Assembly (NCBI GenBank): GCA_950295325.1
Contig: OX485805.1
Span: 47,144,758 to 47,208,757 of the forward strand
Direction: 5' to 3'
Length of the DNA: 64,000 nucleotides
DNA from: Polytrichum commune
Taxonomy: Eukaryota > Streptophyta > Polytrichopsida > Polytrichales > Polytrichaceae
The notes beneath the pieces were generated by a model. The model was given only the letters and a program-made list of their open reading frames with translations. It did not search any database and was not told the origin of the DNA. This document shows, in pieces, positions 4,337 to 64,000 of the stretch. Position 1 is the first letter of the stretch, and each line of letters starts with the position of its first letter. The translations under genes and the position numbers were made by a program.

Positions 4337-5203
4337 CCTGCCTCAAACAATGTGCCCTTGCAAATGACACATCACTTGAATGCCGTCCTCCCACCTTTTT
4401 GAAAAGGTAGGAGACAATGGGCCTGCGATGACCTCCACCACCACCACCACCTTATCTAGTACGGACCTATGATGTGTTAGCATGTTGCACCGGTGCATAA
4501 TGTATGCATGTGTTATTTAGTTCCTCTTCTTAATTGGGCCCCCATATTTGATTGTATGTGGTTCAGAGAGGATCAAAGAGCAAACACATAAAGGCACAAT
4601 TTAAAAGAGATCGGACGACATCTTTGAATATCGTCAACTAGGTACTCTACACTTGTGAGTGACACAAGTGGGAGGACCTATGTATTCTATTTAAAGAGTC
4701 AACAAATGTGCACTTTCAATAACCGAAACTAAAACGGGGAAGTTTGATCTTCAATCTGATTTCTACTGATGCTTCATTATAAAATTGCTCTTGCAACAAC
4801 ACAAGTTTTGTTGTGTAAATCTAATCGGTAGAAGTTGAAAAATATGACAACAAACCGAGTAACACCCACATACCTCACAAAATGAATCCTCATATAGTGC
4901 GCTCAACATGCCACCATTGATGGCCGACCATTTTTGGAACGGTATGATGACAACCTCGACTTAGCATCATGTTATTCCTTGTATATGAAACACTTGTGAA
5001 TTTGCCAAATTGTGAACGAATTTCATGATGGGATAGTAAGTTTAGTGATCGCCTTGTCAATTGATGTAAATTGAAACCTACCTTCAAGGGAATATATGGA
5101 AGTGTATTGCACTTGGTAGTGTAGTGTTATGAGGAAGTCACCCACAAAAACATCATCAAAAATCTAACACATGTAATAGATATTAGCCCCACTACACCCC
5201 ACA
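4337..5203. other. intergenic, no gene seen
   Basis: Unremarkable DNA between a MITE and the LINE. It holds a short CAC run near 4,430-4,450 but no convincing coding or RNA feature. Confidence 0.45.
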
Positions 5204-6420
5204 AATGGCCCCTATCTCTTACATATTGTATTTCCACCTACATGAATAGTATACACATAGCCCAAACCATTTACCGGAAATATTGCATAGAACCGCCCCG
5301 CCACCAACACCACACGGACTCCCCACGATCGCCGCTCCACTACCACTCCAAGCCCCTCCGGGCTTCCAAAACAACCCACAAATATACCACCAAGGACCCC
5401 ATACATTTAATGGTTAGTGCCCATAGAGAATATCACAAATGGCTCCCATACTTCCTTTATTATGTATTGTTGTTTCTCCACAATAAAGAGTTCAAAATAT
5501 TGCTCATATCCCAAAGATGTCTCTATATTATGTACATTATCTCATCTCACCCACATACCACAAAACATAAAACCACACTAATACCACACTACAAACCCTC
5601 CAAACATACCCACATTAACCCCCAACACTTAAAACCCCACAAATCTACACACAAGACACTCCAAACTAAGCCACCGAACCCTCACCTCAACTCCCAATAT
5701 CGTCCAAGAAAAAGACTAATACTCAACATCATAATCCTACTATGGCTAAATCACCTCTCCATCACTAACCAAACACATCCTAAATCCACAATAAATCCAC
5801 AAACACTACCCACACCCTATAAGCACACGCCACACACTAATACTTCTTAGCGGTGATATACAACCTAACCCCGGACCAATCTCACACATTACCAAAAACC
5901 TCCCCCAAGAATATACACAAAGACAAAGATATTTTTTCATACCCAACTTTATGTATTGGTTCTTCTATTATTGCTATAATAAAGAGCATACGCTCAACAT
6001 TTGGCAAACTTGGACACACCCCCAACACATCCACACTACTTACCAACAAACACCTCACCAAACTAACAACACAATCCAAAAAGATACAATATACCACAAA
6101 AAACCTCCAAAGTCCCCACACCAAACAAGAAAAACTATAACCTTAAGTATTATAATTACAATAATAATACCAAGCTACAGCACCGCTATCCATCAAATAA
6201 ACCCCGCCCATACGAACAACTCACACCAACATCAACACACCCATAACAAACACCCATCCTTATACAAAACTAACCAAATATATTATAGACCTCTAAGTAC
6301 TCATACTCCTTAGCGGCGACATACATCCTAACCCCGGACCACCCGCACATATAACTAAAGGTCTCCCCCGGGACTATACACAAAGACAAAACATTACTTT
6401 ATACCCAATACCACCTCACT
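5204..6420 (+). repeat. LINE 5' region with diverged repeat units
   Basis: Several blocks recur. Sequence after 5,848 (TTAGCGGTGATATACA, then CTAACCCCGGACCA) recurs after 6,309 (TTAGCGGCGACATACA, CTAACCCCGGACCA), and both copies continue to an AAGACAAA block. Blocks around 5,204, 5,436 and 5,945 share a CACAAATGG... or TTATGTATTG... core and a TTTC/CTTC(T) stretch; the later two also share AATAAAGAG. This resembles the monomer-type 5' regions that act as promoters in some LINEs, which I infer but cannot show. Open frames here are expected by chance because T is scarce. Confidence 0.55.
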
Positions 6421-6499
6421 TAAACCCTCATATACCCACCTAGAAAAATTATTCTCAACACACCTAACACAAGACTCGCCTAACCAACAGCTAACCAAC

Positions 6500-7642
6500 A
6501 TGCACCGTCACAAACCAATACTTTCACAACACCCACTACACTCCCAAATTTATGCCCTCATAATAACATATGGACCTACACCACAAATATGCGACCAACA
6601 AATGGTTGAAGACATCGACCCCCGATGCCTCACCATCCTCAAAAGACTACAAAGATCCCCGGAATACACTTCCTTACACACACAACACTTACACACCATC
6701 AACCACCACACACCACCTACTACCATAGCACAAACATACACACACATAAATGAAAAAATAGCCAAAGGGGAAAACATAACTATGCCTATCCTACAAAAAG
6801 AAATACCCCATATACCCCCACAAGTACTACTAGAGCTAAGCAAATGTACACAAACCATACATGGTTACCACTCCACACATGACATATTACACCCCAACCT
6901 TAGCCCGAACACCAACATAGACACGGACAATCACCAAACTTCCACATTAAAAATAATTACATAGAATACAGGATGTATCAGCTCAAGTTTACCTGGAATC
7001 CAAGAACTCGCACGAACAATACATAAAGACCCACATATCATACTCATCCAAGAAACTAAACTCTAAAAACTAAAATGCACAACATATATAGACAAAAAAT
7101 TCCCAAACTACAAAATTATATATAATAACTCAAACACCACAACACCAAACCAAAACAGATATTCTAGGGACAACCCGGCTAGAGGGGGTACCCTAACTAT
7201 GATACCTAAAACCATTCACACAAATGAAAATATCACCAAAATCCCCACACCTAGCACAATCTCACCATACCTACAAGTCATCACCATAAAAAATAAACCA
7301 ATCACCTCCATACTCCTCATAAATATGTACATGCCTACACACCCCCAAGACCTACACCTAATACAAGAAATCCAAAACCAAATCCAAACATTAGTACAAA
7401 ATCATTCAACACACCACATCATACTAGGAGGTGACTTCAACCGAGACATCCTCCTTAAAGGACGGTCATCCAACGGAATAAAATCCCCTCCCAACCCACA
7501 TGACCATGAATGGGCTCACTTCACACAAAGACTAGGATTTAAAACGATTAATAACCACGAAACATATACAAGGCAAGAGGGACACAATTACACCGCGACA
7601 AGCCACATTGATGGATTTTACTCTAACCTCCCAAACCACGCC
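6500..7642 (+). pseudogene. LINE ORF, N-terminal segment and AP-type endonuclease (5' part, broken)
   Basis: One frame runs from the ATG at 6,500 into an exonuclease-endonuclease-phosphatase domain. The first 154 codons match no family I recognise. The endonuclease begins around a TAG at 6,962-6,964, where the family usually has a WN or QWN motif; NTG follows directly. QETKL lies just before a TAA at 7,064-7,066. The GGDFNR metal-site motif follows near 7,430 and SHIDGFY near 7,600. The domain is cut by a MITE. Its last motif, NSDHYP, lies beyond the insertion near 8,110 in the same frame once the MITE and one target duplicate are discounted. The enzyme would nick target DNA to prime reverse transcription. 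The two stops show this copy is dead. Confidence 0.8.
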
Positions 7643-8056
7643 CCCGGGGAGTGCACTTAAAGTTAAGATTAGGAATACACGTGAGTGCATTTTAATGGCA
7701 TACCCCCTACAATACTTGGCCTTAAAATAGTTTTTAAATTAAGACTTTTGAAGTGCCAAATCATTACGTATATATCTATCACTTGGTATAAATTTCAGGA
7801 CGAAAAGTTTTTAAAATTTATTAAAAAAAATGATAGAAGTTTGAACTAAAATACGTTGTTTTTTGCTTCAAAAATCAATTTAAAAATATTTACAATTGAT
7901 TATTTTTTGAAATTTATACAACAAGAACTTTAGATTGTGTTTAACAACTTCATATTTTTTTTACAAATTTTAGATGATTTTTTAGTACATACATAGGGGG
8001 GTCAAAAGTACGCACTCACGTGATTCCTAGTCTTAACTTTAAGTGCACTCCCCGAG
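7643..8056 (+). mobile_element. MITE inserted in the LINE, 47-bp TIRs, 8-bp TSD
   Basis: Inverted ends of about 47 bp begin CCCGGGGAGTGCACTTAAAG on the left and CTCGGGGAGTGCACTTAAAG on the right strand. ACCACGCC is duplicated at 7,635-7,642 and 8,057-8,064. An 8-bp duplication suits hAT-type elements and long TIRs suit Mutator-type ones, so the superfamily stays open. There is no transposase. Base composition is ordinary (AT-rich, balanced strands), unlike the LINE around it, so it arrived later from a different source. Confidence 0.85.
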
Positions 8057-8064
8057 ACCACGCC

Positions 8065-10210
8065 TCCCTACAAAGCCACACAATCACTAACCTTAACCAA
8101 AATTCTGACCATTACCCGGTCCAATTACAATTAGCCCCAAACACTATAATTATAAAGACCAAACCAACACCTAACACCAATCCTAGGATCACCTATCCTA
8201 TATCCCCGATAAATATCCAAAACCTCCTAACAACCTTCCTAGATAAACAAAATCTTGAAATATTAAATCTCATAGACACACTACAACAAGAACAACTCGC
8301 TCAACCACAATGGGAAGAAGCCCAAATTAACTTCCAAAAAATCTTAAATTCTCTCAGCAATTGTGTTGAGCAAACATGCATGACACAACCCACACCCCCT
8401 CTCTCCAACCGAGCCAAGATCCAAGGCGGATTCCTCCCAAGAAAGCAACAAAATTTTTGGAAATCACACCTCAAAGTATATCATAGCATCCGCAAAACAA
8501 TACATGCAGCATGCCACTACCATCACACACAATTACATAATCACCCTGACATAAAGACACTCCTCTCACTCCACAATGTCAACATCCCCCCTCCCCACAA
8601 ACCCCACCACCCACAAGCAATGGATTGAGGACATAGCCCATATAGGACAAACGGCCAAAATAGATGCCTACAAAATTACCTCCAAACAAACCTCGCTCAA
8701 CTGCAAAATCGCCATCAAGAAATATAGAGCCCTACTCAACACCAAACCCAAAACTATCCACAAAAAGATCTTCCAACCATCAACCGAAAGCTCGTTGGAT
8801 TGCATAAAAAACTCTCACGATAACATACTTACCAAACTCATAGAAATAGCCAATGAAATATACCGCGCCCAACAAATATCATTTCAAAGACAAACGCCCA
8901 TTTGCGATGACACCATAGACCACCCACACATATGCATGTGTGTCATACGAAAATATCCATGGCATTCACAAGACGGGATCATAATAGACAAACGCGGACC
9001 TCAAAACCCACAAATAAGCTTACAATTCACTAGAGAAATATATGACAATTGTGTAAAAAGATTAACCAAAGGTGAAACCCCCGGCCCGGACAACATTCCC
9101 AACGACATCATCAAGATATTACCCCCACAATGCCAAACCCTTATATTCTTATTCTTCCTACATTGCTACAAACAACGGGAAATCCCAACTGCCTGGAAAT
9201 ACAGTAAAACTATTTTATTCCATAAAAAAGAAGACCCTACCCAACTCAACAACTATAGACCAATAGCGTTAGCTAATACAATATATAAATTATATACTAG
9301 CACCTTAACAACCCTCCTTACAAACTACGGGGAAAAAAACCGCATACTACACTTCAGTCAAGAAGGTTTCCGCCCACAACGTAATACCTCAAGGCAAATA
9401 CAAACGCTAATAGCCTCCCTCGAAGATGCACGACTCACGAATAAAGACATATATTTAACATACATAGACTTGAAAAACGCTTTTGGTTTTATAGACCACG
9501 CAAGACTCCTGGCTATCATGGCCGACCTAGACTACCCCCTAGATGCCATCAAAATAGTAGGCAACATCTATAACCATTCTACCACCGCCTTCACGGGTAA
9601 CTTCTTCGGAACCACACCTCCCATCAAAATTAACCGAGGTACCATACAAGGTGACACCCTTAACCCATATTTATTCATAATCTTTCTAGAACCACTCTTA
9701 AGATGGCTAGAGAAGGGCAATATGGGCTACCACTTTAGCACGTCCCCATCCACATGCACCACATCGGCATATGCCGACGACCTAGCCATTATCACCGACA
9801 AAATTCAACATATTCAACCTCAAATAACTAAGCTCCAAAAATTCGCCGAATGGGCGCACATGGATCTCAACTTATCAAAATGCGCCATCACCGGTTGCCC
9901 TAACAAGTCCAAACTCAAACCTAATACCTTTAAAGCGTTCATCCAATCCCAAAACATTATGTATAAATCCAAAAACTTCCCAACCTTTACACAAAATGAG
10001 CCATACACATACTTAGGCATCCAACTAGTGCCATCCCTAAAATGGAATCTCCAAAAAGAACTCACCTTAAATAAAGCCAAACAACAAGGCAAACTACTTG
10101 CCGCCTCCCCGGCAAGCTTAAAACAAAAAATCAAAATCCTTAATACCGTCATAAAACCTCGGATTGCCTACGCATACTATACGGTCCCCTTTTCAAAGCC
10201 CGATATTTAA
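8065..10210 (+). pseudogene. LINE ORF, end of AP endonuclease and reverse transcriptase
   Basis: The endonuclease ends with NSDHYP near 8,110. A linker follows, then the frame shifts by one near a C-rich tract (between about 8,540 and 8,625). From there the reverse transcriptase reads through to a TAA at 10,208. Family motifs in order are: GPDNIPNDIIK near 9,080; FRPQRNT near 9,370; YIDLKNAF with the first catalytic Asp near 9,460; GTIQGDTLNPYLF near 9,640; and YADDLAI with the catalytic pair at 9,770-9,781. All catalytic aspartates are intact. The enzyme copies LINE RNA at the nicked target. The stop at 10,208 lies downstream of the catalytic core in a sequence that simply continues in frame, so it is a point lesion, not a natural end. 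Confidence 0.88.
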
Positions 10211-11728
10211 AAACTTGATAAAATAATCAGTAAAATAACAAAAGAAACTTGCAACATACCAAAAAGTACAGCCAATATCCTCACACACCTACCCCACGAA
10301 AACTTCGGCATAAATATGACCTCACTACTCCCAGACTACATTCATTGTATAGGTCAGCAACTACTACAAGCCCTCAACGATCCAGGGCAACTAGGTACTA
10401 TCTATCAAGGCCTAACCAAATACATATCCGCTAAATACGGAGGTTCCCTACACCTACCTAAACTAAAACAACAAGCGTGCTCTAGGTCCCCTATAGCACG
10501 GACACTATTCCTACTCAAAAGAGAATATGAAATACATGTAACCACCAAAAACAAAACCTTCCCAGTCAAAAAAACCCCACTAGAAATAGCATGGAGAACC
10601 AACCCCATATACAACACCCTCTCGGACCACTCTAAAATACAATCCCAAAAATACCTAGACAAACTCTATACATATGGCATAACCACTCTATCACAAATCT
10701 TAAACAAAACTAGCACATCCATCCTTACCCCCGAAGAATTCCGCATCACATACAAAAACGCACCCAAAACCATTAAGGCGGCACTACAACAAGCACAAAT
10801 ACTATTCCCTCAACCACAACAACCCGCATCCCAAACAACACAACACCCGACACAAACCACCGACCCCAACCTAAACCCAATACTTGGGAACGCCATACAT
10901 AAAATCATAAAAGAAAAAACTACCACAAGAAAGGACAAATGGGGAGCACAAGCCATCAAAACAACATACTTATGCCAATGGCAGACCACGAACAACACCA
11001 CACATCAATGGCGCACAGAAGAAGACTTATTCCACCTGGACAACATATTCTTAAACCATAACCTATTAACCATCACACAATACCACACCGCAACCACAAC
11101 ACAAAACACCACTAACACATATGCAAATTACCTTACCAATACCCAAACAAAAGACACTAAGTTTATACATCCACCACTAACAATCACCAACCTCACACTA
11201 AACATCCATGAATGTAACCCCGACAAAGATATCATAACCAACAAACCGTCCATAACAACACACGCATTAGGAGCAAATATATATGACCAAAAATGAAACT
11301 ACATAGCTACCCTTACCCTCGAAAGGTTACATTGGCTATGGAACCAATTCTCTCATAACACCCTTCAACACCTCACTAACTTCCTACAACCACCACCACA
11401 AGATTTTGAAACAGAAATCCTATGGCTCCTACAAAGATACATAACTATACTCCCCAGGAAAAAGCCAAAAACTATCCAACCAAACAACCTACACCAAACA
11501 CTACCCCCCGAAATCACCAAAACACTCATAGAATCCTTCCAAATTACACACTCATACTATTCATCCCCCCTCACTTGCCCTACCCAACTCACCCAATATA
11601 ACTCCCCACACACTCGAGACATACTATTTGGATCAATAGGCAAAGCAAACTCGGCCAAATGGACAGGGCATGGACTAGCGTTCCCCACGGACCACAATAC
11701 AACCCTCGAAGCCCTCCACTGGGCTAGA
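10211..11728 (+). pseudogene. LINE ORF, connector between RT and RNase H, with a methyltransferase-like motif block
   Basis: This region stays in the reverse transcriptase frame, broken only by the TAA at 10,208 and a TGA at 11,294-11,296. The first part resembles the thumb/connection region of LINE enzymes, with a conserved GINMTSL...Y stretch near 10,310. From about 11,545 comes a separate block: SYYSSPLTCPTQLTQYNS, then FGSIGKA, then GHGLAFPTD, then a short hydrophobic strand ending NHKDW (near 11,780). That succession resembles the core of PCIF1-like N6-adenine methyltransferases (SPL, then FGS.G, then NPPF, then a strand ending in W), but the catalytic NPPF position reads AFPTD. The link is an inference with modest confidence. 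Confidence 0.6.
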
Positions 11729-13615
11729 ATGGCCGCTAAAGAGGATGCACAAACAATCACTATCCTAATAATAAACCACAAAGATTGGACACCACAACAA
11801 ATACCACTCACAAACCCGGACATACACATCCTAGCCACAATCCCACCACATACTATAACATACAACCCCACGCCAGAATGGCCAAAATACTACCAATACA
11901 CCGAACCATCCCTTACATCAATCATATGCGTACACAACCAAAGAACCATACTAAATAACACCCAAATACCAACCGCATTACAAAGAATACTCAAAAACAC
12001 TACACATACACACATAGACATCCACCTCATTAAACCCACACCCACACATTACAACGTTAAATTCTCTAACGCATGGAAAAATGCCCCTAAAACCACCCCC
12101 CTCCAAACCATAAACACCCATATAATACCCCTACCAAGCACATTCACAAACACATACCCCCTTAAATTCCACCCACAACAGTGCACATATACGGATGGAT
12201 CATTCATCCCCCCGACCAAAAACTCCGAAGGCCAAATAGAAGGAAACACTGCAGGATCGGGAGTATATAGCCCTAACAACAACACAAAAATCTCAGAAAG
12301 ATTACCAGGCTACCAAAACATACTTAGAGCCGAACTCAATGCAATTCTCATTGCCGTTAAAAATATACAACTCACTAAAATAGACACACACATATTTACA
12401 GATAGCCTTAACAGCATATATCTAATTAACAACCACATCCACCGCCCAACATCACAACACCACCACCCAGACAAATTACTCATAGCAGCAATAATACGAC
12501 ATATATATTGGACCCCACACAAAATACACATACATAAAGTACGGGCTCATACAGGCATCACCGGAAATGAAATAGCAGATGCACTAGCAAACGAAGGAAC
12601 TACCAAAGAAAAACCGAATACCGCCCCACGTATACACACTGCCCACTCGACCCCATACTGGCTAGCAGGCTGCCCAACAGCCACACACGACGGAGCCATC
12701 CGTAACTTACGTACATTCATAACCAAAGAACACGAAACAAATGAAGCAGACCTAGCCAAACATAAATTCCCATACGTAGACAAATGGCTATCCAATACCC
12801 AAATAAACCAAAAACTCTCCAACCATTTTTGGCAGGACGAGAAAATCCCGGATACCCAAATCACCCAAACACTCAAATTTAGATACGCCCAATATATGGG
12901 TAACCACAGGAAAAACATATTTTGGCCTATCACACACCCAAACCCCAATTGCACGCTATGCCATAAAAATGAACGTGACACATGGCCTCACCTACTATCC
13001 ACATGCGAGCACCCATTCCTTAAAGGACTTAGAATTGCACGACACAACAAAGCAGTACATCTCATCGCCCAAACATTACAAGCCAACAAAAATACCAGAT
13101 TCTTTACACTAACAAACGCAGGTCACTTTAATAACCAACCACAAGAACAAACAGTACCGGAATGGCTGCTCCAATGCACTTGCCACCCAAACCCATGCCA
13201 ATGCCTCGCCAAACTAAGACCAGACATCCTATGCATACTCGGAGCACCAAAACAAATACAACCACCTATATCACCCTCTCCCGAACATACGATCCAATTC
13301 ATTGAATTCACATACTGCCATGATAGATTCCCAGAACAAGCCATCACACACAAACATGCCAAATATGACCCACTAAATAACATCATCCAAAACAACGGTT
13401 GGAAAACCAACCCCCTCATAACCATCACGGCAGGAGTAAGAGGAGCCATACACGAACACTCCATTGAAAATCTCACAAAAATAAACATCCCAAAATCAAA
13501 CATCAAAAAATTGATGAAAGACATACACCAAAACGCCATCAAATACCTTACCTACTTAGTACTAAATAAAAGAAAACTAGACAACAAACAAAAACCCGTA
13601 CCCCCTCCTAATTAA
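11729..13615 (+). CDS. LINE ORF 3' part: RNase H, CCHC knuckle and restriction-like endonuclease
   Basis: This 628-codon open stretch is in frame with the reverse transcriptase and ends at TAA 13,613-13,615. It is a segment of the polyprotein, not an independent gene. RNase H spans about 12,180-12,600 with YTDGS, RAELNAIL, FTDSLNS and GNEIADALAN, so all four acidic residues are present. A CCHC knuckle (CX2C-X9-H-X4-C) lies at about 12,950-13,010. A CTCHPNPCQC cluster sits at about 13,177-13,206. It is followed by RPD (13,217-13,225), then IEFT with Glu at 13,304, 27 residues after the Asp, and Lys at 13,361, 19 residues after the Glu. This is the PD-(D/E)XK arrangement of restriction-like endonucleases, placed after a CCHC motif as in R2-type elements. 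Further support is the GW...G.RG tail. Confidence 0.82.
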   Translation: MAAKEDAQTITILIINHKDWTPQQIPLTNPDIHILATIPPHTITYNPTPEWPKYYQYTEPSLTSIICVHNQRTILNNTQIPTALQRILKNTTHTHIDIHLIKPTPTHYNVKFSNAWKNAPKTTPLQTINTHIIPLPSTFTNTYPLKFHPQQCTYTDGSFIPPTKNSEGQIEGNTAGSGVYSPNNNTKISERLPGYQNILRAELNAILIAVKNIQLTKIDTHIFTDSLNSIYLINNHIHRPTSQHHHPDKLLIAAIIRHIYWTPHKIHIHKVRAHTGITGNEIADALANEGTTKEKPNTAPRIHTAHSTPYWLAGCPTATHDGAIRNLRTFITKEHETNEADLAKHKFPYVDKWLSNTQINQKLSNHFWQDEKIPDTQITQTLKFRYAQYMGNHRKNIFWPITHPNPNCTLCHKNERDTWPHLLSTCEHPFLKGLRIARHNKAVHLIAQTLQANKNTRFFTLTNAGHFNNQPQEQTVPEWLLQCTCHPNPCQCLAKLRPDILCILGAPKQIQPPISPSPEHTIQFIEFTYCHDRFPEQAITHKHAKYDPLNNIIQNNGWKTNPLITITAGVRGAIHEHSIENLTKINIPKSNIKKLMKDIHQNAIKYLTYLVLNKRKLDNKQKPVPPPN

Positions 13616-13770
13616 AGATAGCTTGTTTGTATTAAAACCCTAGAGCCCACCTCCCCACAGGAGGCATAAAACCATACACTGCATCACGGAATACCGTGAT
13701 CAGTGCATGGCTAATGGGCTCGCATTCACGCTGGTATCATATACTAGCGTTACTTTTTCTTTTCTTTTCT
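13616..13770 (+). promoter_or_regulatory. LINE 3' UTR with three hairpins and a pyrimidine-rich end
   Basis: Three hairpins follow the stop codon. CCTCC (13,650-13,654) pairs with GGAGG (13,660-13,664). CACTG-C-ATCACGG (13,677-13,689) pairs with CCGTGATCAGTG (13,694-13,705), 12 pairs with one bulge. ACGCTGGTA (13,728-13,736) pairs with TACTAGCGT (13,742-13,750) with one G-U. The element then ends in a TTTTCT-rich tract rather than poly(A). Structured 3' ends are known to be reverse transcriptase recognition sites in several LINEs; that role here is inferred. Confidence 0.6.
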
Positions 13771-14587
13771 TATGAGGAAGTTCATCTCGATAGTTGCCTC
13801 ATCTCTTGACTTTATGGGCACCTAGATGTAGAAAACACATGTCCACCATCCCTACCAAAGAAGAGATTTAAGGTGAAGGAAGAACAATGACATTACTTAG
13901 AGTTATCCTTCAACACAAGGGGAATATTTCGTCGGGAGTTTTCATTGGTTTTTCATACAATCATTATTTCATTCCACTTGTAGTGCATGCCCGGAGCTAG
14001 ATTAGATAGTGCTATCATTGTGGGTGGAAAATTAGTGTGGAAATAATTAGGGTGGGTCATTCGAATTCTTTGATCAAGGTGAAATTAACGTGGGTCCAAG
14101 ACCTTTACTTTTTTCCTCAAATTTTCTTGAAACTTTTGACCAAGACCTTACATAAAACAAAATAGTCACTTTACATCAAAAGTAGCATTCAAAAAGAATC
14201 ACCAGGGTTGATTTTCTAGAAATACAATAAATGTAGGGTGAAAGTACATTTGGCCCACATTAATTCCGATCATTACCCTGACCCAAAAATTATTGTGGGC
14301 CCGCATCAAGAGGGCCATTTAGTGTAGTGTTTTGACTTTGATTGAAGAGCAATCAATTTTGGTTCCTTGAGGCCAAACTCAATTTAGCACCTCTTGGTAT
14401 GCCAAGATGAATTTGACTTTTGTTTGAACTGGTATAGATTATTCTTCGTTCAAACCTCCACACTACCTTTTAATATGCAACAAAAAGTTGCCAAACATGA
14501 AAGGTATTATTCCAAAACAACAAATTCCTAACCAAAACACTTGTTGAGTTAAATGATATTTGTAACATTTGTGCATAAATGCAAATA
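13771..14587. other. intergenic with a dispersed repeat
   Basis: No gene is seen. The part at about 14,325-14,415 (AAGAGCAATCAATTTTGGTT and flanks) recurs inverted at about 27,065-27,160 in an intron of the ATRIP-like gene (AAGAGCAATTGATTTTGGTT on the minus strand). The ends of this repeat family were not resolved. Confidence 0.5.
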
Positions 14588-37969: not shown

Positions 37970-38302
37970 GTCTAGACAATAATAAATTTTCAACAACTAT
38001 GTTAATTTACATTGCTTTATATACATAGGTGTGAAGATAAAATTTTAACGCTTAAAAATAAAGATTAAAAGTTTTAAAAAGAAACTTATGAATAAATTAA
38101 AAGACATGTAAAAATAAAAGTAAAAAAACTCATAAATAAAATAAAAGACACATATCACAACTACAGTTTTTACGTAAGACCCAAATTATTTCAATTAGAA
38201 AATTCATAATCAAAAAGTAATTTATATCACTCAATTTATATATAGTTTATGACATTTTTTTCCAAAATTCTTATACTTCAACGATAAGAGCATGCCAAAA
38301 CA

Positions 38303-38866
38303 ATGGATCTTAATATTTATGACTTTCATAATGACAATGAGGTGTATCCAATATTATATATAATTTGGGTAGTTGCATATATCAAAAGTTGGAGTCAAAG
38401 ACGTAGAAACCTACATCTACCAAGAGAAAGGTGGGTTTTTTCAACATTGTTGCATCGATGGATTGCAATGTATAACGATCTTTATAATATGAATGAAGGT
38501 GTGAGGGATAGATTATGGATTCACGACTTTCAAATGAAGTATGCTACCTTTTTGGAGTTGGTCGAGCTTTTAAGGCCATACATTCAACATCAACATACAC
38601 GATATAGAGAAGCGCTTCTTGTCACAAAAGTTGTAGCTATGATATTACATAAATTGGCAAAAGGTCTTGATAATGTGGAGGTGGGTGAAATCTTAACATG
38701 CGGGAGTTCCACTGTGTACAAATATACTTTATTGATATGTCATGCCTTAGCTGATAAGGACAAACTGTTAAAAATATATATTAGTATATCTTCAGGTATT
38801 AGGCTTGCCAATATTATAGTAGGCTTCTATTATATCACTAAAATTTATGTACCCAAAATATCATGA
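38303..38866 (+). pseudogene. PIF/Harbinger transposase, N-terminal fragment
   Basis: 187 residues match the N-terminal and helix-turn-helix part of plant Harbinger (DDE_4) transposases. Seen here are FLELVELLRPYIQHQHTRYR, VTKVVAMILHKLAKG, VGEILTCGSSTVYKYT and LLKIYISISSGIRLANIIVG. The frame stops where the family continues into the CGAIDGTH catalytic segment, so the DDE core is missing. Surrounding DNA to about 40,000 is very AT-rich and shows no remainder. This copy cannot be active. Confidence 0.75.
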
Positions 38867-46779: not shown

Positions 46780-48883
46780 CTAGTTGCTGTTCGAGGGGGG
46801 CTTGCCGCTCTTCTCACCGCTTCCACGTGACACAGCATCCTCCTCCTTCGTCGTGTCTAGCATTTCCTCAACAGAGGCGTTGGCCATAGTGAAGCGTGTC
46901 TTGGGTGCCTTGCACTCTGCAATACAAGCAGGACACAGCCAAAAATTAGAATATCAATCTTAGCAAAATATTGCAATTTACTAAACTATTGCAGAATACT
47001 CGGTATTTGAGATCTGTCAGTGCGAACCCCAACCTTGTACAATTTTAATGTGATCATGTGTCTATGTACAGTAACTACAACTTAAACTATGTACCAGCAT
47101 AAAATTTGTTCCTTAGGATGGGTACATAAAGACGTGCATGTAGACAATAATGGCAGCACCGGAAGAGTTGGCAGGATAAGTACACATCCTGTAAACTGAG
47201 ACAACAACCGCTTTATACCAAATGTTCCATGCAGACAGCAGTGGTAGCATTCATAGTCTTGGAAGAATACTCGACTACATCGAATTGGATTGTTGTTGTC
47301 CCAGTCAGTGCATGTCCTCTTACTGAATCAACAACTGTGACTTTTCCTACACACAGAGTAAATTGACGATATTGCATGCAAACAGTAATGGTAGGAAGGA
47401 TATAATTGGTCGTGTGGAGGAAGGAGGAAATGAACTTACGAGGGCAGTTGTATTCGTCGGGGACATCTTCGAAGGGTGTCTCCTGGTCGTAGACGTACCC
47501 ACAGTCTTGGCAGACGTAGGCGATCCTCTCCCCGACGGGCTTGTCTGTGCCCTGGGCGAGAGGAGCGCTGCTGGAGATCACACCGAGGGGGATCTCGGTA
47601 CCGCTGAGACCGGGTGGAGAAGTGGGGGTGGTGGGAGCGTTGCTCCTGCCAGCACCGGAGCCTGGCTCAGCCTTACCCTCGGAGCGCACCACCAAACCAG
47701 ACATTCTCTTGAATGACACAGCGGCACCTGTCAAACAGCAAGCAAACTGTCAAATCATCTGCAACTTACTATCCCGAATTATGCATTTTCCAGATTCAAC
47801 TATGGTTGAAATGTCACTCGATTAACCACAGTAGACTCTGTTGATGGCTATAACCACCATCCAGTCCCCTTTCTTCTCACCATAAATTAAACTCTAGATT
47901 CTTCTTCTTGTGTTAGCGTTCGTATACAAACACACACAGATTGTATCCCGGTTGCATTACCCACCCCGCCTAGCTACAGGTGATCTTCAACATAGTTCCT
48001 GTGAGAACTATGCATTGACACCCACATGACAGCAGCAAATCACGATGGGTAGATACGCAATTGGGAGAGGGGGCACCCACCCCTGATATGTAAGTTAACA
48101 GTACATTCAGGTGGTGCAGAAATGAAGGGAGTGTACCACCCTAGGTTGTACATTTTAGAGATAACTCCTGATGGTATGCTGAAATTGAAGACTCGGCTGG
48201 TTACAAACTAACACTAATATTGAAATTAGCTTATCTATCCCTCCGCATTTCTACTTCTAACCGGTGGAATGTGTTCAAACATCACCTCGACATTCACCGA
48301 ACAACTCACATAATTAAACCCCGCAGGTACAGACATGCAGAGACCGTCCTACCACGCTACAAACTGACCAGCAGAACAGAATTTTTTGCGAGACCTCAGC
48401 TGACACCCACAGAACAGCAACCCGCTACCAGAATGCACAAAACAACCTGCGCGACTACAATTCGCAAAAACAGAAGTCTTGCAAGGTCAAGCAGTAATTA
48501 TCTTAAGGGAACTCAGATGATGATCTGCTGGAATTTAATCTAATGGGCCAGCTGCTTTGATATTGGTGATAGTCAACTTAACTCTTCTACCCCTCCACAA
48601 TGCTGCTACTTCGGAGCTAACGCAACATGTTCAATAATCAAGACCGTCGCCAAACAGCTGCCATGCAGACACCATGACCTATGACAACTAAAACCAAACC
48701 TCAAGTTTCCCCTTCTCGGTATACTATAGCCGGCAGAAAAGAAAAAAAAATCCCATACTTACCACTGTTAAACCTGACGTTGCTGGGTGACGCCTGCTTC
48801 AAGCTCGAAGCACCGCGAGCAGCAGCAGCGGGAGCCACTGCTGCCACTGAGACATTAGCTACGCTTGACATGACGAACGCCAT
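46780..48883 (-). CDS. rubredoxin-like protein, probably plastid
   Basis: Three exons on the minus strand: 48,883-48,763; 47,727-47,440; 46,916-46,780. Phases close to 181 residues. The rubredoxin fold holds one iron in four cysteines: CQDCGYVYDQETPFEDVPDE gives the first pair. The second pair, CPQC, is completed across intron 2 (NCP|QCKAPKTRF). The first exon is Ala/Ser/Val-rich with no acidic residues (MAFVMSSVANVSVAA), as in a chloroplast transit peptide. A Pro/Ser/Gly-rich linker separates it from the metal site. The C-terminal tail is short and acidic-polar, without a membrane segment, so the protein should be soluble, unlike membrane-anchored plastid rubredoxins. Electron transfer in the stroma is the likely role; the partner is unknown. 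Confidence 0.85.
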
Positions 48884-51927: not shown

Positions 51928-52970
51928 GTTCAACATAACACCAACACCGGACTTATGAACACTCAAATGAGGGGGTTGATTATTTTTAGAACACGATTCT
52001 ATTAAGACTTTCAAGACCTCTTATTCACTGAGCCTTCCTAGAAGGTACTAGGAAATCAATGAACATAATGATAATCACCTAATTTCCTTACATGAAGATA
52101 TGATAACTTCAACGACCACTAGTTACGGATGAGCCCGTTGACTTTGAGAAATAACCAGTTGAAGTTCAAGACTGCAGGGAAATTACTGATCATTTTAGAG
52201 GAATCTACGAACTATTCCTCAAATTAATGAAGAAAAACCGAAAGATCACAAGATGTAACCGGTTGGGCTTGGAAACACTAGGAAATTGACCGATTATGCC
52301 CTAAAATCTCCCCGGACAATCTTATCATGGTACTCTGACATTCTAAGTGTTGGGAGTTCAATTAAAAGTTGACATATGGTTAATTAGGTGATCATGGATT
52401 ATGTGGTAGAAAGGGAATTTTGTATATAAGTATACAAGCATACGTATTTCTCATCCGTCCAACATAAAAACTTGACTCCTTATAGGTTTGTTGTCAATTT
52501 ATTTTGAATGACTTCGAGTACATTAATTCGGGGTCTTTGAAGCTTATTCTAGTGTCAAATCAACTAAAGAAAACATCCTATGGGTTGTGTATTATTTCAA
52601 GGCTTTTATGTTGGACGAATGAGAGGTACATTTGTATACAATAACTCCCTCTCTTCAGGTTACGTGCTTGAGACCAAGAGCATCTTCCCTTGGATGGGGG
52701 GCATGTATCGCCTCATGCAGTCCTATTAGTCGTTGGCCAGCTGATCTTCGGTTGGTTTTTGGATAGGCAATCCTCGGGGGGGGGGGGGGGGGAGGAAAAA
52801 AGGAACACCCATATTATGCATTGGTGTGAATGTGAGCCTATTATTCTTATATTGATCATGGTTAGCTATGATGCAAGATAAGGTGTTGTGCTTTCCTTTC
52901 AGGAGATGAGTTCAAAGGGAGGGGGGGGGGGGGAAGACGGATGTTTTGTTATTCTCTAATTCTCTTTTTG
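51928..52970. other. intergenic with two long G runs
   Basis: 17 consecutive G at 52,776-52,792 and 13 at 52,921-52,933. No gene is seen. Confidence 0.5.
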
Positions 52971-52971
52971 T

Positions 52972-53425
52972 TTAGGATAAGGCATGTGAGATATTTAATG
53001 GTGTTTTGGTGTATGTTTTTTCATGAGATTTTTTAATGGTGTGATTTGGGATGGTGAGTTTATTAAGCTTTCTTATGGAGTGTCCGTGTATGGCTCCTCT
53101 ACCTTTGGTTGTGACGATTATGAGGGAGTTTACTTTCCATCTATTGTTTTGAAATGTATTTATTAATGGGTCATATTTAGTGTGTTTTTGTTCAAGGGTT
53201 TGTTTGGAAAACCTATTATGGCAATATGTGAATTCCATGAATTGGAGTGTGTGCGTGGGAGAGGGGGTAATTGGTATTTGGCTTTGGGGGTTCCTATTAT
53301 GCATAGGATGGCAACTCTTAGTTTTGGTGGACATTGACATGGTGGGTGTGTGCAAGTGCATATAAGTACCCAATCTGAACTTGTTGAGTCGGGCATGTTG
53401 TTATCAAAGTGTTCAGAGACATTGT
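52972..53425 (-). pseudogene. second, 5'-truncated LINE copy: restriction-like endonuclease remnant
   Basis: Minus-strand frames match the last part of the LINE at about 13,130-13,560. Matching pieces are SDWVLICTCTHPPCQC, then LCIIGTPK, then QFMEFTYCHNRFSKQT, KHTKYDPLINTFQNNRW and GRGAIHGHSI. One frameshift separates the first and second pieces. The catalytic RPD of the large copy reads RVA here, so the nuclease is inactive. Sequence 3' of the stop does not match the 3' UTR at 13,616-13,770, so this is probably a different subfamily. It shares the A+C bias on its coding strand. Confidence 0.8.
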
Positions 53426-59718: not shown

Positions 59719-61109
59719 GTCCCCTTTACTTAAAAGTTTTAATTTCATTTAGAATTTGATTTTTCTTTTATTTCTCTATTTAACCCCTAACTTCCCAAGC
59801 AACCCATTTTGGGTTGATGGATGATTTATTCCCTACATTAACCCCACCTAACTCATTCATCCACAATCTAAATGACTATAAACACCAAGCCAACATGGAC
59901 ATCTCCATATTAGACACATAAGCCGTGCAATTTGGAGATGATTAGAATGTGGAAAAACATGTCAAAGTGGGAAGTGGTTATGTTATGTTGTGCTAGGAGC
60001 TCATGTGAGGGTGTCAATTCCAATCAATGGTTGCCATTCCAATACAAACTTTGCATGAACAACAACAATGTTTATTTTGGTAAAAGTGAGATATTTTCTA
60101 ATGTTCATGTAAAAACAACCTTGTGCTCACATAGACTGTTTCGTTATTTGGACAAATTTTGATTTTTAGGGAATTCTTTGCATATATGTGGTTAGAAATA
60201 TGGGACATTTTACATGCTTCAAGTGCAAGGTGATTAGCTTGTCATGGTTTACACATTTTGACATGAGAATTTGTGGAGGTGCTCTCAACAATTGAGTTGT
60301 TCCCATCTAGTGAATCACACAAGCATTTTGCTCAATTTGTAGGTGAATTTAATTGGTCAAAGGTCTTCTCTTGGGGGATAAAATATGGCATTTTCTTGTA
60401 CATCTCCTCCTTCAATTGCTATAACATTAAAATTCAAAGGGTTATTCATGCCCGTATGTCTTCTCAAAAATAGTTCATCTCCTATGTTTCAAGATCCTGC
60501 AGATATATCCCATTTTAACCTCAAACTTGTCCATGAAAATTCCACAAGCAACATTGAGTGAAATGCACTCAAACCAACCCTTTCAAAGGCTTGGGAAGTT
60601 AAGGGGTTAATTTCTACAAGGGAGACTCGAATGTGCTTGATGGTGGACGGATACGTATGAATTTCAAGAGAATCTTTCTCTCGGCTCGAAGAAGTTAGCG
60701 AGCTTCATATCACCATCTGCTAACTTACGTTAAGTTAGTGTCGCAGGATGCACTCACACACCTAGCTTGAAGAATTCGGAGTTCCTGTGAGGAATCATTC
60801 GCCAGGGAAAAGCTTAATGATTTACTGCATCATATTACAGTAGGAATTTGGATTTTGGGTTTGGCCATTTGGGTGTGTTGCACGTTTCGACGAACATCTA
60901 GTTCGCGGCTTTATTACAGAAAGATTGTGGGTTCGAGGTGCAGTGTTACATTTTCGACAAACATCAAGAGCTGCATTCTCTTACAGTAAGATTGTGGGAT
61001 TTGGGTGTGTCGCATTTTCGAGGAACACCAAATTTTCCCGTTACCTATTCATCCTGATTAGGTAGCCCTCGGACATTCTGGCGTTTTCTATCTTTCTGTC
61101 TCTCTCGCC
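58746..61109. other. intergenic between divergent GluBP and FAD oxidoreductase genes
   Basis: This interval holds both presumed promoters. A compound microsatellite (CT at 59,676-59,700, then AC at 59,701-59,718) is present. A plus frame at 59,115-59,309 (PGHLRDYASDLGKYKVGQFF) has no family I recognise. No TATA box could be assigned with confidence. Confidence 0.45.

Positions 61110-64000
<2,891 letters not shown>

What the first reader, a model, noticed from the sequence alone, without database searches (positions are those of the whole stretch)
5204..13770. A dual-endonuclease LINE (AP endonuclease plus restriction-like endonuclease) in a land plant
The sequence shows AP endonuclease motifs (QETKL, GGDFNR, SHID, NSDHYP), reverse transcriptase (YADD), RNase H, CCHC and then RPD-27-E-19-K in one frame series. 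Two endonucleases of different folds in one element are the mark of Dualen/RandI, described from the green alga Chlamydomonas. Surveys of flowering plants find L1 and RTE LINEs. A plant-borne member would extend the lineage into embryophytes or mark a horizontal transfer.
Basis: partly seen in the sequence, partly recalled or inferred. Interest (0 to 1): 0.9.

Follow-up and report, generated by a model that had tools for sequence, protein, structure and literature searches.

The report
Two-endonuclease LINE in a land plant
A dead but nearly complete jumping gene in what is most likely a land plant carries two unrelated DNA-cutting enzymes, a combination described mainly from algae, together with a captured domain resembling an RNA-cap methyltransferase.

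The parts
5127..5138 (.). left target-site duplication TTATGAGGAAGT
   Evidence: perfect 12-bp match to 13770-13781; 0 of 2000 shuffles reach 12
5139..13769 (+). whole LINE copy (8631 bp including the MITE-like insert)
   Evidence: bounded by the duplications; A/C-rich + strand inside, not in the flanks
5849..5878 (+). first 2A-like motif SGDIQPNPGP, in a duplicated unit (5836-5927)
6312..6341 (+). second 2A-like motif SGDIHPNPGP, in the other copy of the unit (6299-6390)
   Evidence: related motif at the matching place in P0004
6359..6964 (+). N-terminal linker between the 2A-like motif and the APE, shared with P0004
   Evidence: tblastn of P0004 residues 154-575 onto 6383-7639, 66% identity
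6965..7642 (+). AP endonuclease, first part (N, E, D-x-N and D residues present); start approximate
   Evidence: PF14529 E 1.2e-7; catalytic residues compared with 37 relatives
7643..8056 (.). MITE-like insert with 32-nt inverted repeats and 8-bp ACCACGCC duplication (7635-7642, 8057-8064); splits the APE
8057..8150 (+). AP endonuclease, last part (NSDHYP); end approximate
9224..10027 (+). reverse transcriptase (YADD)
   Evidence: PF00078 E 7.7e-31, residues 224-491 of ORF 8555-10210; trees
11075..11995 (+). PCIF1/CAPAM-like methyltransferase-fold domain; FPTD (11681-11692) at the NPPF position
   Evidence: PF12237 E 1.5e-7; own profile; model core matches PCIF1
12182..12598 (+). RNase H (TDGS, RAEL, TDS, ADA)
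   Evidence: PF00075 E 6.8e-16
12950..13006 (+). CCHC zinc-binding motif
   Evidence: C, C, H, C invariant in the 21-row alignment A4
13007..13615 (+). restriction-like endonuclease (RPD, E, K); stop codon 13613-13615
   Evidence: D 32/32, E 32/32, K 24/32; model me4c3722fc329, Foldseek and VIA-align
13616..13753 (+). 3' UTR with four helices: 13643-13649/13715-13721, 13650-13654/13660-13664, 13672-13689/13694-13710, 13728-13737/13741-13750
   Evidence: z -6.75; covariation with the second copy
13754..13769 (+). (TTTTC)n-type 3' tail
13770..13781 (.). right target-site duplication
52780..53411 (-). second, more decayed copy: RLE end and 3' UTR; limits approximate
   Evidence: tblastn 50-53%; 3' UTR alignment A6

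Best explanation
It is a dead, near-full-length copy of a non-LTR retrotransposon (LINE) of the two-endonuclease, Dualen/RandI-like kind, inserted in a plant genome, most likely of a seed-free land plant. Likely mechanism: the transcript is translated into a polyprotein from which a 2A-like leader may be released (inferred). The Pol protein recognises the hairpins and TTTTC tail at the RNA 3' end (inferred from structure and covariation). One endonuclease nicks the target, the RT copies the RNA from that nick, RNase H removes the RNA, and a second cut 12 bp away gives the target-site duplication (the duplication is shown; which nuclease makes which cut is unknown). Catalytic residues of both nucleases are largely kept across the clade, so both are probably used (inferred). 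The PCIF1-like domain probably binds, or in NPEY-bearing relatives perhaps methylates, the element's own capped RNA; in this copy it lacks the motif and looks catalytically dead (inferred).
Against: No named Dualen and no named RTE, I, Jockey or CR1 reference was in the tree. With the L1-type sequence as root, the tie of the clade to R2 elements is 0.988 in FastTree but only 74 in IQ-TREE, where 11 other sequences fall inside. A relative's RT (P0012) matches L1 too (6e-19), though less well than R2 (1.5e-24). The copy is broken, so no activity can be read from it. The host call rests on one gene. The RLE profile hits 16 of 61 control proteins: 8 lie in the R2 group, 4 carry PF13966 and 4 are others; 3 of the 61 match both nuclease profiles (P0029, P0047, P0175). 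K is replaced by A in 7 of 32 rows and is a gap in 1. Eight of 38 3' UTR pairs are broken in the second copy.
Confidence: 0.88

Rival explanations
1. It is an ordinary plant L1 or RTE element, and the apparent second nuclease is the zf-RVT/CCHC tail seen in plant L1.
For: The RLE profile also hits 4 controls that carry PF13966 (zf-RVT; name recalled). No named RTE sequence was available to exclude RTE by tree.
Against: The RT is outside the branch holding the Striga sequence P0065, taken as L1 from its PF13966 domain. PDB hits for the window RT are R2 at 1.9e-30, with no L1 at E up to 1. The model of the tail matches R2 nucleases over 184 residues, not a bare zinc finger.
Confidence: 0.05
2. 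It is a composite: an APE-type LINE inserted next to, or recombined with, an RLE-type element, so that the two nucleases never belonged to one element.
For: The frames are broken at several places in this copy.
Against: RT, PCIF1-like, RNase H and RLE parts share one frame from 8555 to 13615 apart from two stops. 33 of 37 long relatives match both nuclease profiles in one protein, APE before RT and RLE at the end. One pair of target-site duplications bounds the whole.
Confidence: 0.03
3. The element is algal or microbial contamination rather than part of a plant genome.
For: Nearly all relatives are unnamed records (sources ena, jgi, lgn), and the only one with a species name is from Parachlorella.
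Against: The same 64-kb window carries a plant-type FAD oxidoreductase gene and a second copy of the element at 53 kb.
Confidence: 0.04

Closest known systems
Dualen/RandI non-LTR retrotransposons (Chlamydomonas; LINE/Dualen also reported in cryptophytes, PMC12747079, one passage read)
   Same: APE upstream of RT, RNase H, C-terminal CCHC plus RLE in one element; short non-poly(A) repeats at the 3' end (RandI tails listed in PMC3747384, table passage read)
   Different: Plant host; PCIF1-like domain and 2A-like motifs, not mentioned in the Dualen passages I could read (the 2005 original is not held); no protease domain found in the two N-terminal ORFs scanned
R2 retrotransposons
   Different: R2 has no APE and no RNase H and inserts in rDNA (recalled); here APE and RNase H are present and the window has no rRNA match
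Plant L1 LINEs
   Same: APE and RT; some plant L1 also have RNase H (PMC4640811, passage read)
   Different: RT placement; RLE present; no poly(A) tail
PCIF1/CAPAM cap-specific adenosine N6-methyltransferase
   Different: NPPF is absent from the 42 rows: NPEY in 12, FPTD in the window; embedded in a retrotransposon polyprotein
2A/2A-like ribosome-skipping peptides
   Same: NPGP end and N-terminal position; 2A-like sequences are known from other non-LTR retrotransposons (PMC4981915, passages read)
   Different: E of D[V/I]ExNPGP is Q or H in this copy; function untested

Membership tests
Dualen/RandI | AP endonuclease upstream of the RT in the same element | tested here: met
Dualen/RandI | C-terminal CCHC plus PD-(D/E)XK endonuclease | tested here: met
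Dualen/RandI | RNase H between RT and RLE | tested here: met
Dualen/RandI | RT in one clade with two-endonuclease elements | tested here: met
Dualen/RandI | RT in one clade with the named Chlamydomonas Dualen sequences | not tested
   no such named sequence among the retrieved proteins
Dualen/RandI | N-terminal cysteine protease (recalled from the 2005 description) | tested here: inconclusive
   no Pfam hit in ORFs 5795-6313 and 6359-6964; ORF 5125-5850 was not scanned and the 5' part is broken; PF02338 or PF02099 (OTU, Josephin; names recalled) are listed for P0113, P0011, P0120 and P0144
Plant L1 | RT inside the L1 branch | tested here: not met
   one named plant reference (P0065); P0067 (Papaver) was dropped as too short
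Plant RTE | RT inside the RTE branch | not tested
   no named RTE reference among the retrieved proteins
R2 | RLE as the only endonuclease (no APE) | tested here: not met
PCIF1/CAPAM methyltransferase | PCIF1-type fold | tested here: met
PCIF1/CAPAM methyltransferase | catalytic NPPF motif | tested here: not met
   FPTD in the window; NPEY in 12 of 42 aligned rows, NPPF in none
2A-like peptide | D[V/I]ExNPGP | tested here: not met
   window has GDIQPNPGP and GDIHPNPGP; the full motif is in P0121, twice
2A-like peptide | ribosome-skipping activity | not testable with these tools
   needs a translation assay

The most novel reading that the evidence does not exclude
The two-endonuclease LINEs form a large, old lineage that captured a PCIF1-type cap-adenosine methyltransferase domain early and kept it beside both nucleases. 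In members that keep NPEY the domain may still methylate, and in others only bind, the cap of the element's own RNA, giving cis-preference or shielding from host decay. The lineage passed from green algae into land plants, where it persists unrecognised.
Probability: 0.3. Interest if true: 0.88.

Novelty: new variant of a known kind. Interest (0 to 1): 0.76.

Why it matters
Dualen is used to argue that APE-type LINEs arose by replacing the RLE of older elements (PMC4640811, passages read), and one table gives it for green algae only (PMC4438587, one passage read). A plant member widens the host range and offers a setting in which to ask which nuclease cuts which strand, since the catalytic residues of both are largely kept in relatives. 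A cap-methyltransferase-like domain matched in 34 of 37 long relatives was not found in print by my searches; it would make the cap of a retrotransposon RNA part of its replication cycle, which can be tested directly.

Tried and rejected
Plant L1 placement: rejected by RT trees and by PDB hits of the window RT. Chance junction of two elements: rejected by the shared frame, the order in relatives and the single pair of duplications. Contamination: unlikely, plant gene in the same window. A third copy of the 5' repeat unit: only the pair at 463-bp spacing was found. Chromo domain in ORF 10211-11296: E 0.046, below Pfam's cut-off, not claimed. tRNAs and Rfam families: none found in the window. 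Relatives in viral contigs and prokaryote genomes: none confirmed. The first RLE profile had the window row in a wrong frame, my error; the alignment was repeated in the right frame. In one search, 31 of the 37 relatives with a match were used; P0154, P0149, P0150, P0008, P0013 and P0167 were left out for weak matches. In the RT tree 116 of 132 entries (131 proteins and the window) were kept and 16 short ones dropped. The IQ-TREE run used a subset of at most 58 of 118 rows, chosen by me. The PCIF1-like profile, built from 8 relatives and the window, matched 44 of 72 entries; 42 rows over 150 aa were aligned, one with a gap at the motif. Profiles for APE, RLE and PCIF1-like parts were built from clade members, so clade counts are partly by construction. 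Catalysis by the PCIF1-like domain in this copy: rejected for lack of the motif.
Full report
What is there. A LINE of 8631 bp runs from 5139 to 13769 on the + strand between perfect 12-bp duplications TTATGAGGAAGT. No shuffle of 2000 of the two 60-base flanks gives a match that long. The + strand inside these limits is A- and C-rich (third codon position of the Pol frame A 0.42, C 0.37, G 0.07, T 0.15); the flanks are not. Pfam finds AP endonuclease, RT, RNase H and, unexpectedly, PCIF1_WW. The copy is dead: in-frame stops at 6962, 7064, 10208 and 11294, a frame change near 8587, and a MITE-like insert with 32-nt inverted repeats and an 8-bp duplication inside the AP endonuclease. A second, more decayed copy of the 3' end lies on the - strand at about 52780-53411.

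Host. A gene at 61062-63316, an FAD-dependent oxidoreductase read from its exons, matches Ginkgo and Taxus best among named sequences (54%), with three unnamed sequences at 87-97% over 41-51% of the query. In a tree of 22 sequences the host gene is sister to a group of 15 (support 0.999) that holds Ginkgo, Taxus and flowering plants, three of the 15 being unnamed (P0070, P0082, P0085); host plus this group has 0.947, and with Mesotaenium (P0087) 0.976. An unnamed protein, P0078, falls outside Mesotaenium. That the source labels Gb_ and Mesen1 mean Ginkgo and the streptophyte alga Mesotaenium is recalled. This points to a land plant that is not a seed plant. It is one gene, and no named fern, lycophyte or bryophyte was in the set, so the group is not fixed.

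Relatives. A search with the read-through Pol protein returned 67 proteins and one with an alignment of six of those returned 70. The relatives are giant proteins of up to 3825 aa (P0121). The only one in the clade with a species name in the listings is from Parachlorella kessleri (P0147). P0001-P0004 are 50-77% identical to the window.

RT tree. 116 of 132 entries (the window included) plus two R2 chains from the PDB were aligned. The window groups with P0001-P0004 and P0145 (FastTree local support 1.0), next to P0124 (0.977), inside a clade of 70 rows (0.995; 0.651 without P0167). With the Striga sequence P0065 as root, that clade joins the R2-type elements (0.988). IQ-TREE on a chosen subset of at most 58 rows gives UFBoot 100 for the subclade, 100 with P0124 and 100 for the 30 clade rows present (61 without P0167). 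The tie to R2 is weak there (74, with 11 further sequences inside). By sequence the window RT matches R2 in the PDB at 1.9e-30 and no L1 at E up to 1; the relative P0012 matches R2 at 1.5e-24 and L1 at 6e-19. No named RTE, I, Jockey, CR1 or Dualen sequence was available.

5' and 3' ends. Two copies of a 92-nt unit (82% identical) carry SGDIQPNPGP and SGDIHPNPGP. P0004 has GDIQPNPGP at the matching place; P0113, P0115 and P0121 (twice) also carry NPGP motifs, P0121 with the full GDVEPNPGP. The 3' UTR 13616-13753 folds at -55 kcal/mol, z -6.75 against 200 shuffles; 21 other windows along the element give z from -3.2 to 1.4. Against the second copy, 7 of 38 pairs changed on both sides and still pair, 3 changed on one side, 8 are broken and 20 are unchanged. 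Four of 500 shuffles reach 7, and slid structures give 0 to 3 such pairs. The second copy's own 3' end does not fold unusually well (z -0.9). The tail is TTTTC repeats, not poly(A).

Literature. Searches for Dualen/RandI or two-endonuclease LINEs, with plants where possible, and for PCIF1 with transposons showed no report of either point in what was listed. Several lists were cut: one search showed 40 of 78, 15 of 8700, 40 of 95, 15 of 784. Passages were read in PMC4640811, PMC3747384, PMC4438587, PMC8226300, PMC12747079, PMC3636483, PMC5348765, PMC4981915 and PMC5753468. PMC4438587 lists Dualen/RandI for green algae only; PMC12747079 reports LINE/Dualen in cryptophytes. The 2005 description of Dualen is not held and is recalled. 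Subscription papers and Repbase were not available, so priority is not established.

Verdict. The element is a Dualen/RandI-like LINE in what is most likely a land plant, and a new variant by its host, its PCIF1-like domain and its 2A-like leader.

Noticed in passing
window 7643-8056: MITE-like insert with 32-nt terminal inverted repeats (97% complementary) and an 8-bp duplication ACCACGCC, inside the AP endonuclease
   Followed up: partly
window 38288-38866: ORF that looks by eye like a PIF/Harbinger-type transposase fragment; no Pfam hit at E up to 0.01
   Followed up: no
window 47213-47749, - strand: Exon with a rubredoxin-like match (PF00301, E 0.00039, below the curated cut-off)
   Followed up: no
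window 5139-13615: Coding strand is very poor in G and T (third codon position of the Pol frame G 0.07), a strand bias carried by the element
   Followed up: no
P0167: Sister of the rest of the clade, with RT, RNase H, an RLE match and a partial AP endonuclease match but no PCIF1-like match
   Followed up: partly
P0113, P0011, P0120, P0144: Relatives whose precomputed Pfam lists include PF02338 or PF02099 (OTU, Josephin; names recalled)
   Followed up: no
P0121: Giant relative with two full 2A-like motifs 66 residues apart, and PF00628 (PHD finger; name recalled) in its Pfam list
   Followed up: no
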